Below, piece by piece: positions 34,420 through 49,624 of a stretch of 64,000 nt of DNA. Origin of the DNA: Pseudomonadota bacterium (GTDB lineage: Bacteria > Desulfobacterota > Desulfobulbia > Desulfobulbales > SURF-16); contig JAHILF010000011.1 of assembly GCA_018897105.1 (NCBI GenBank), forward strand, positions 1 to 64,000, in the 5' to 3' direction. The position numbers were made by a program, and so were the translations under genes. Numbering within the stretch: position 1 is the first letter of the stretch; every line of letters starts with the position of its first letter. Under the pieces are notes generated by a model, which did no database searches, was not told where the DNA came from, and was given only the letters and a program-made list of their open reading frames with translations.

Positions 34420-35742
34420 TCACTCCAGCTCCGCGCTCACCTTGTCGCCCCGGATGTCATCCTGAAAAAGCGACATCCCCCTTTCCATGGCGCAGAAGTC
34501 GCCGCACATGGTGCAGGTTTTGGCATTGCCCGGGGTGCGGCTCCGGCGGATGGCCGCCGCCGCCTCCGGGAACATGAGCAGGCGGAAATGGTCGTCCCAG
34601 CGGGTGTCCCGCCGGGCCAGGGCCACGGCCTTTTCCCGCTGCCGGCGCTCCGGGTATTTGGCGATGTCGCCGATGCGGGCCGCCAGTCTTGTGGCCCGCA
34701 CGCCCTGGCGCACATCATCCTCGCTGGGCAGGGCCAGATGTTCCGCCGGGGTGATATAGCAGATCAGGTCGGCCCCAAAGCGTGCCGAACTGGCCGCGCC
34801 GATGGCCGCGGTGATGTGATCATAGCCCGCCCCGCTGTCCGCCGGCAACGGTCCCAATACATAATAGGGGGCGTTGCCGCTCATCTTTTTTTCCAGCAGG
34901 ATATTGGCCTCGATCTCATCAAGCGGCACATGGCCCGGCCCTTCCACCATCATCTGGCAGCCCAGGTCCCGGCCGATCTCCGCCAGCTCGCAGTTGATGA
35001 TCATCTCGGCCATCTGGGCCCGGTCATGGCTGTCGTGGATGGCCCCGGCCCGCAGGCCGTTGCCCAGCGACAGCACCGCGTCATATTTTTTCATCAGCCC
35101 GCACACCCGGTCAAACTGCTCGTACAGGGGATTTTCCCGGTTGTTGTACTCCATCCAGGAGATCATGAAGGTGCCGCCCTTGGACACCAGGCCGCCGTAA
35201 CGGAAGCCCTGCCTGCGCAGGCGGTCGATGCTGAAGCGGTTGATGCCGCAGTGGATGGCCATGAAGCTGATGCCGTCGGCCAGCTGGCGTTCGATCAGTT
35301 CAAAAAGATACTCCGGGTCAAGTTTGTTGGGATTGCGGTACTGGCGCGCCGCCTCGGCAAAGGCCTGATAGAGCGGGACATTGCCCACCGGCAGGGAGGT
35401 TGTTGCCAGGATCTCCCGGCGCATTGCGTCAAGCCTGCCGCCGGTGGACAGCTCCATCAGGGTATCGGCCCCTTCGTCTTCCGCGATGCGGGCCTTGCGC
35501 TTTTCCATCTCTGGATCATCAATATCCGACGAGGTGCCGATGGAGGCATTAACCTTGGTGCGCAGTCCGGCGCCGATGCCGACGATCCTCTGGCCGGGCC
35601 GGTTGGGATTGTTCAGGATGACGATCTCGCCTGCGGCCACCTTGCCTCTGATCTCTTCCTCCGCGCACTGCTCATCTTGGGCGACACGTTGCATCTGCGG
35701 GGTGACAACTCCTTCCCGCGCCAGTTCCAGCTGGGTTTTCAT
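34420..35742 (-). CDS. bzaF: ThiC-family radical SAM enzyme, likely 5-hydroxybenzimidazole synthase (BzaF)
   Basis: This 440-residue protein belongs to the ThiC family, which rearranges aminoimidazole ribotide. The C-terminal CTMCGDFCAME (CxxCxxxxC) cluster motif is present, as are MVEGPGHVPL and the SGADHIT-like YDHITAAIG segment. ThiC makes the thiamin pyrimidine, while its paralogue BzaF makes 5-hydroxybenzimidazole, a cobamide lower ligand. The leader here is a cobalamin riboswitch with terminator and no TPP riboswitch, as reported for bza genes, so BzaF is favoured. ThiC remains possible because the two are very similar. The start ATG 35742 has a GGAG box; the longer frame runs into the terminator hairpin. 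Confidence 0.78.
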   Translation of the reverse strand: MKTQLELAREGVVTPQMQRVAQDEQCAEEEIRGKVAAGEIVILNNPNRPGQRIVGIGAGLRTKVNASIGTSSDIDDPEMEKRKARIAEDEGADTLMELSTGGRLDAMRREILATTSLPVGNVPLYQAFAEAARQYRNPNKLDPEYLFELIERQLADGISFMAIHCGINRFSIDRLRRQGFRYGGLVSKGGTFMISWMEYNNRENPLYEQFDRVCGLMKKYDAVLSLGNGLRAGAIHDSHDRAQMAEMIINCELAEIGRDLGCQMMVEGPGHVPLDEIEANILLEKKMSGNAPYYVLGPLPADSGAGYDHITAAIGAASSARFGADLICYITPAEHLALPSEDDVRQGVRATRLAARIGDIAKYPERRQREKAVALARRDTRWDDHFRLLMFPEAAAAIRRSRTPGNAKTCTMCGDFCAMERGMSLFQDDIRGDKVSAELE

Positions 35743-35792
35743 ACTCTCTGCTCCTTCGGGCCGTTCAGCCGCTTGGTCACTGTCCTGCGGGC

Positions 35793-35844
35793 AAAAAAAA
35801 ATCCGTGCCGCAGCACCGGCAACTACCGGTACTGCAACACGGAT
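35793..35844 (-). terminator. Intrinsic terminator in the leader (riboswitch expression platform)
   Basis: A long GC-rich stem (35801-35819 with 35826-35844) is followed on the minus strand by eight T residues. It lies 20 bases downstream of the cobalamin aptamer and 50 bases before the ATG. Such placement suggests transcription is stopped when cobalamin is bound. Confidence 0.85.
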
Positions 35845-35864
35845 TAAGGACATCTCCATGAATT

Positions 35865-36183
35865 ATGATCCTGGCAGGTCTTCTGACTTGCAGATCGTCC
35901 CGCAGCCACGCCTTCCCGTCATCTGGGAACCTTGAAAAATTACCCTCTAGCCCGATTACTACGTCGCGGCGAAAAGAAAAATGCTCACATATGACCTATA
36001 TGCTGCGCTCTTTATTTTCACCGCTCCTTGTCCTCGAACCAGATGCTTAATTTTTCAAGGCACCCATTAAAACAGTGGCATTATGTGGCAGCGGTCCCTG
36101 CTTACAGCGCTGGCCCAACGTTACGGATTTGCACCGCATTCCCTTTTCACCGCCGGTCCGGAGACCGGCGACACCGAGATCAT
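35865..36183 (-). promoter_or_regulatory. Cobalamin riboswitch upstream of the ThiC/BzaF gene
   Basis: The minus strand shows the classical order of conserved elements: AAAAGGGAATGCGGTGCAAATCCG, then GCTGTAAGCAGGGACCGCTGCCAC, GCCACTG, GGGAAGGCG and finally GATCTGCAAGTCAGAAGACCTGCC. The P1 helix closes between ATGATC (36183-36178) and GATCAT (35870-35865). The aptamer is longer than normal because a palindromic element lies in the variable arm between GCCACTG and GGGAAGGC. All core elements appear intact. Confidence 0.88.
35925..36065. mobile_element. MITE-like palindromic element inserted in the riboswitch
   Basis: The ends GGGAACCTTGAAAAATTA and its near-complement (TAATTTTTCAAGGCACCC) bound a stretch of 141 bases. 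The same element, with the same end sequences and interior blocks (TCTGGTTCGAGGACAAG, TTTCTTTTCGC, AGTAATCGGGC), occurs at 49465-49624. There is no transposase. It is located in the variable arm of the aptamer, where it can fold on itself as an extended stem. Confidence 0.8.
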
Positions 36184-36310
36184 CTCTGTTAAGACAAAGA
36201 GAATTACCGAAACAGCGCAAGAATGCAAGTCAAAAAAAGCGACTGCGAGCGGTCAGGCAGTTATCCCCCCTCAGGGGCAACATATTCTGCCTGACGGCAT
36301 ACTCCGGCAA

Positions 36311-49464: not shown

Positions 49465-49624
49465 GGGTGCCTTGAAAAATTAGGTATCTGGTTCGAGGAC
49501 AAGAAGCAGTGAAGATAAAAAGTACCCTATGGGGTATAAACTCCGCATATTGAGTATCTTGTGAGCATCTTTCTTTTCGCTACGACGCAGTAATCGGGCC
49601 AGATGGCAATTTTTCAAGGTTCCC
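49465..49624. mobile_element. MITE-like palindromic element, second copy
   Basis: This 160-base stretch shares ends (GGGTGCCTTGAAAAATTA ... TTTTTCAAGGTTCCC) and internal blocks with the element in the cobalamin riboswitch at 35925-36065, there in inverted orientation. It lies between the 102-residue hypothetical gene and icd. No coding potential. Confidence 0.78.

What the first reader, a model, noticed from the sequence alone, without database searches (positions are those of the whole stretch)
35925..36065. A transposable palindromic element sits inside a cobalamin riboswitch aptamer
Seen: conserved aptamer blocks flank a 141-base element whose ends and interior recur at 49465-49624. The insertion is between GCCACTG and GGGAAGGC, a peripheral arm that varies in length in this riboswitch class. 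Since the element is itself palindromic, it can form an extended stem and may leave the aptamer core functional. Insertion of a mobile element into an RNA sensor without destroying it would be a notable route of riboswitch evolution.
Basis: partly seen in the sequence, partly recalled or inferred. Interest (0 to 1): 0.85.

Follow-up and report, generated by a model that had tools for sequence, protein, structure and literature searches.

The report
Mobile hairpin element inside B12 riboswitch
A small jumping DNA element that folds back on itself has landed in an outer loop of a vitamin-B12-sensing RNA switch, and the sensor's core sequence and predicted fold look intact, which shows one way such RNA sensors can acquire new arms.

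Summary
The finding holds. Window 35856-36193 (-) is an Rfam cobalamin riboswitch (91.4 bits) ahead of a ThiC paralogue, probably BzaF. The element is a MITE: 17-bp terminal inverted repeats, 17 matching places in this genome, matches in 24 of 58 genomes of the order searched (own genome included), and 4-bp target duplications (23 of 47 copies exact, 2.4 expected). Orthologous leaders in three same-genus species, and in more distant relatives, lack it. The core is 98-100% identical to those relatives, and the terminator and ribosome site are kept. In folding, the element pairs only with itself and 99.5% of aptamer pairing is unchanged; random genomic 141-mers at that site keep 75% on average. 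Nearly every copy of the family would do the same, so this tolerance is a by-product of the palindrome, not an adaptation shown here. A second member of the family interrupts a cobalamin aptamer in another family of the order, between P2 and J2/3. Two hits are close to what chance gives, so no targeting is claimed. Ligand response was not tested. The duplication at this copy is only 2 of 4, and no transposase was found.

The parts
35856..36193 (-). Cobalamin riboswitch aptamer (RF00174), interrupted by the element
   Evidence: 91.4 bits, model positions 1-189, 148-nt insertion
35925..36065 (-). 141-bp MITE in the loop between GCCACUG and GGGAAGGC (L11 by the btuB naming, inferred)
   Evidence: Terminal repeats GGGTGCCTTGAAAAATT / GGGAACCTTGAAAAATT; 17 places in the genome; absent from orthologous leaders
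35800..35845 (-). Intrinsic terminator downstream of the aptamer (likely expression platform), 20-pair stem followed by T8-9
   Evidence: Terminator scan; stem kept with changed sequence in three same-genus relatives
34420..35756 (-). ThiC paralogue, probably bzaF; likely true start ATGAAAACCCAG preceded by AAGGAG, not the 35859 start of the listed ORF, which lies in the riboswitch
   Evidence: NCBIfam ThiC hits; BzaB model below its cut-off; start, AAGGAG and neighbouring sequence conserved in relatives; better-scoring ThiC elsewhere in the genome without a riboswitch. End coordinate approximate
49465..49624 (+). Second copy of the element in the window (160 bp, long subtype), outside any riboswitch
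   Evidence: BLAST within the window and genome search

Best explanation
A non-autonomous DNA transposon (MITE) of a family spread across this order inserted into the distal loop of the peripheral arm (L11 by the btuB naming) of a cobalamin riboswitch upstream of a ThiC-paralogue (probably bzaF) gene. Shown: insertion relative to orthologous empty sites, family copies with target duplications, retention of every core block, the terminator and the ribosome site, and predicted independent folding. Inferred: because the element is a near-palindrome that pairs only with itself, it extends the arm as a long hairpin outside the ligand core, so the aptamer still binds cobamide and still controls the downstream terminator, perhaps with altered kinetics because about 141 nt more must be transcribed before the B12 box and the closing P1 strand appear.
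For: Empty sites in G004, G002, G001 and further genera, collinear on both sides. MITE signature: terminal repeats, 4-bp duplications in 23 of 47 copies against 2.4 by chance, spread over the order. Core blocks 98.3% and 100% identical to relatives, against 73-82% for flanking leader, terminator and gene start in G002 and G004. Element-aptamer pairing about 4e-6 expected pairs; 99.5% of aptamer pair mass kept, against 75% for random genomic inserts and 89% for shuffled ones. Rfam still scores it 60 bits over threshold.
Against: No ligand-binding or expression data. Thermodynamic folding does not cover tertiary contacts or co-transcriptional folding, and P10-P11 contacts J6/3 in known structures (PMC5359240). 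The age of the insertion is unknown, so core conservation may partly predate it. Flanks agree at only 2 of 4 duplication bases. No transposase was found.
Confidence: 0.75

Rival explanations
1. The insertion damaged the switch: the element is a recent or tolerated lesion and the riboswitch no longer responds, or responds weakly, because arm geometry, timing or RNase III cleavage of the long hairpin disturbs it.
For: A 53-pair hairpin is a plausible RNase III substrate (inference); Rfam score 91.4 against 111.1 and 107 for the G004 and G002 orthologues; no functional data.
Against: Core, terminator and ribosome site unchanged; the score loss is what a long insertion costs; the predicted fold is intact.
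Confidence: 0.2
2. The arm is an ordinary long variable insertion of the riboswitch that merely resembles a repeat.
For: Long stem-loop insertions are common in riboswitches (PMC2258182).
Against: The arm is absent in orthologues and shares terminal repeats and interior with dispersed copies that carry 4-bp duplications.
Confidence: 0.01
3. A chimeric assembly joined a repeat copy into the leader.
For: Draft genome of 177 contigs with 2.29% contamination.
Against: Both flanks are collinear with the orthologous leader and its neighbours. This copy is at most 79% identical to any other copy in the genome, so there is no identical sequence for an assembler to confuse.
Confidence: 0.02

Closest known systems
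Cobalamin riboswitch, RF00174, with variable insertions (Barrick and Breaker 2007, PMC2258182)
   Same: Same aptamer class; long stem-loop insertions at peripheral sites that do not disturb the core are described there.
   Different: Here the insertion can be traced to a mobile element with other copies in the genome and empty sites in sister species.
Pneumococcal BOX element between two T-box riboswitches (PMC3049150)
   Same: A small mobile repeat forms part of a riboswitch leader, and the switches are thought to keep working.
   Different: BOX lies between two riboswitches; here the element is inside one aptamer.
Bacterial MITEs in general (review PMC10969869)
   Same: Short, gene-free, terminal inverted repeats, fixed-length target duplications, dispersed copies.
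   Different: The review calls effects through riboswitches conceivable; it reports none inside an aptamer.
Rickettsia palindromic elements (summarised in PMC10969869)
   Same: About 150-bp palindromic elements inserted in genes apparently without loss of function.
   Different: Those are best known as in-frame insertions in protein genes; different sequence and host group.

Membership tests
Cobalamin riboswitch (RF00174) | Covariance-model score over the curated threshold, full length | tested here: met
   91.4 against 31.5 bits, model 1-189
Cobalamin riboswitch (RF00174) | Conserved core blocks and B12 box present | tested here: met
   AAAAGGGAA, GCCACUG, GGGAAGGC and GCAAGUCAGAAGACCUGCC all present; 98-100% identical to relatives
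Cobalamin riboswitch (RF00174) | Located upstream of a cobamide-related gene | tested here: inconclusive
   Upstream of a ThiC paralogue; ThiC models pass, the BzaB model is below its cut-off. The BzaF name rests on the riboswitch context and on a second, better-scoring ThiC in the genome
Cobalamin riboswitch (RF00174) | Binds a cobamide and regulates the gene | not testable with these tools
   Needs probing or reporter assays
MITE (non-autonomous DNA transposon) | Terminal inverted repeats | tested here: met
   17-bp GGGWRCCTTGAAAAATT at both ends
MITE (non-autonomous DNA transposon) | Dispersed multiple copies, short, no gene | tested here: met
   17 places in the genome, mostly 141-162 bp when complete
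MITE (non-autonomous DNA transposon) | Target-site duplication of fixed length (family) | tested here: met
   4 bp, 23 of 47 exact against 2.4 by chance
MITE (non-autonomous DNA transposon) | Target-site duplication at this copy | tested here: inconclusive
   Flanks ATCT and ATTA agree at 2 of 4
MITE (non-autonomous DNA transposon) | Autonomous relative with the same ends and a transposase | tested here: inconclusive
   No convincing transposon-length pair of these ends in seven genomes or the held loci; no match in plasmids

The most novel reading that the evidence does not exclude
Self-folding MITEs act as ready-made peripheral domains for structured RNAs. Any copy of this family can enter an aptamer loop without mispairing, so such elements are a recurrent source of riboswitch arms, with a second case in another family of the same order.
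Probability: 0.3. Interest if true: 0.75.

Novelty: new variant of a known kind. Interest (0 to 1): 0.55.

Why it matters
Riboswitches often carry long variable arms whose origin is unknown. Here the origin of one is visible: a mobile element caught inside an aptamer, with the empty site preserved in sister species. It gives a natural test of how much extra RNA an aptamer tolerates and whether mobile palindromes supply RNA domains.

Tried and rejected
An exact pattern scan of about 85,000 species genomes for the element end behind GCCACTG gave three loci; none holds a riboswitch: two are chance or coding contexts and one is an element copy just downstream of a GCCACTG that lies near the end of a coding sequence. 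Search for an autonomous transposon by paired ends 230-6000 bp apart gave only chance-like pairs. Plasmid search: no match. Other element loci scanned with Rfam show no element inside another RNA family. Idea that the element targets riboswitches: two hits against an estimated 0.24-0.36 for random intergenic insertion, P about 0.02-0.05, rests on assumed intergenic fractions and a capped copy count, so not claimed. Idea that this copy was selected for harmless folding: 28 of 30 family copies and orientations fold as harmlessly.

Full report
OBSERVATION. The window carries, on the minus strand at 36193-35856, a full-length match to the Rfam cobalamin riboswitch (91.4 bits, threshold 31.5). The model is interrupted by a 148-nt insertion between AUGCCACUG and CGGGAAGGC. 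The second copy at 49465-49624 is confirmed.

WHAT THE ELEMENT IS. A genome-wide search gives 17 places; the terminal 17-mer GGGWRCCTTGAAAAATT (up to 2 mismatches) occurs 33 times against 2 for the reversed control. In 58 genomes of the same order, own included, 24 have matches. In 47 distinct candidate copies taken from the loci held, the flanks show a 4-bp duplication and no other length: 23 exact against 2.4 for shuffled flanks, with T and A preferred. Terminal repeats, constant duplication length, no gene and dispersed copies are the marks of a MITE. Two subtypes differ by an internal stretch of about 20 bp; the riboswitch copy belongs to the short one. No autonomous partner was found.

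IT IS AN INSERTION. The downstream gene is a ThiC paralogue, about 80-91% identical in the closer relatives. Leaders upstream of the orthologues in G004, G002 and G001 (same genus) and in several other genera have the same riboswitch with an ordinary short loop at that point. The promoter-proximal leader (in G002 and G004), aptamer, terminator and AAGGAG-ATG are collinear. Only this genome among 258 of the order has the element end next to GGGAAGGC in exact form, and a scan of about 85,000 species genomes found no other riboswitch case.

WHERE IN THE APTAMER. Published work on the E. coli btuB aptamer names the conserved internal loop J10/11-J11/10, capped by P11 and L11 (PMC5359240); the P8-P10-P11 domain is called optional (PMC2258182). 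By order and conserved blocks the element is in L11. This naming is my inference.

DOES THE APTAMER SURVIVE. Core blocks are 98.3% (58 nt) and 100% (24 nt, B12 box) identical to each of three relatives. Flanking leader, terminator and start of the gene are 73-82% identical in G002 and G004. The arm below the insertion keeps pairing through changes visible (GCCAC/GUGGC here, ACCAC/GUGGU in G004, ACCAU/GUGGU in G002). The terminator keeps its stem with a changed sequence. Folding: expected element-aptamer pairs 4e-6; 62 of 63 listed pairs are within 0.2 in probability of the joined-flank form. Controls at the same site keep less: random genomic 141-mers 0.75 of pair mass on average (5% reach 0.99), shuffled elements 0.89, the element 0.995. 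The same element placed elsewhere in the aptamer keeps 0.91 on average and down to 0.69, so the site matters too. But 28 of 30 other family copies and orientations also keep at least 0.99: harmlessness is a property of the palindromic family. These are thermodynamic predictions; tertiary contacts and co-transcriptional folding are not covered.

A SECOND CASE. In G034 (another family of the order) an element of the same kind (L137:1002-1146) lies between the P2 hairpin and the AAGAGGGAAC block of a cobalamin riboswitch. The P1 arms ATCTTCAGG and CCTGAAGAT lie on either side (L137:974 and 1276), and the flanks AACA/AAGA agree at 3 of 4. Rfam scores it 98.8 bits but fits P1 to the element, because the true P1 and P2 lie beyond it. 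Whether that junction insertion is tolerated is less clear. With 204 copies counted (a lower bound) and about 580 nt of cobalamin riboswitch per genome, random intergenic insertion would give about 0.24-0.36 hits. Two is mildly above that and no evidence of targeting. In both cases the transcribed strand is the one with the more stable hairpin (-65.7 against -41.6, and -47.5 against -25.5 kcal/mol); with two cases this may be chance.

THE GENE. NCBIfam gives ThiC (560.9 bits) and leaves the BzaB model below its cut-off (508 of 700). A second ThiC in the genome scores higher (636.8 bits) and shows no Rfam match within the 3 kb examined. A ThiC paralogue under a cobalamin riboswitch suggests BzaF, the first enzyme of anaerobic benzimidazole synthesis (PMC6461909). 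This is an inference, not a test.

MECHANISM. Most likely the element hangs as a long hairpin off P11 and the switch still works as a transcription-termination off-switch (inferred). The added 141 nt are transcribed before the B12 box and the closing P1 strand, so folding time could change (inferred).

NOVELTY. In the open-access library searched, long stem-loop insertions in riboswitches are described (PMC2258182). A BOX element between two T-box riboswitches is described, with RNA-seq suggesting continued repression (PMC3049150). A 2024 review only calls MITE effects through riboswitches conceivable (PMC10969869). I found no report of a MITE inside an aptamer; subscription journals were not searched.

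Noticed in passing
L137:1002-1146 (G034:C53): A member of the same element family interrupts a second cobalamin riboswitch, between P2 and J2/3; the same 3-kb stretch holds two further cobalamin riboswitches without the element.
   Followed up: partly
window 34420-35859 (-): The mechanical ORF of the ThiC paralogue starts inside the riboswitch; conserved AAGGAG-ATG about 120 bases downstream is the likelier start.
   Followed up: partly
window 35925-36065 and L137:1002-1146: In both riboswitches the element lies in the orientation whose transcript forms the more stable hairpin, by about 22-24 kcal/mol.
   Followed up: partly
G037, a 1.7-Mb genome of the same order: First-look search gave 135 candidate places for the element family, far more than in most relatives; a possible recent expansion and a place to look for the transposase.
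   Followed up: no
L006:1865-2335 (G000:C61): Two tRNA genes followed by a group II intron match lie a few hundred bases from another element copy.
   Followed up: no
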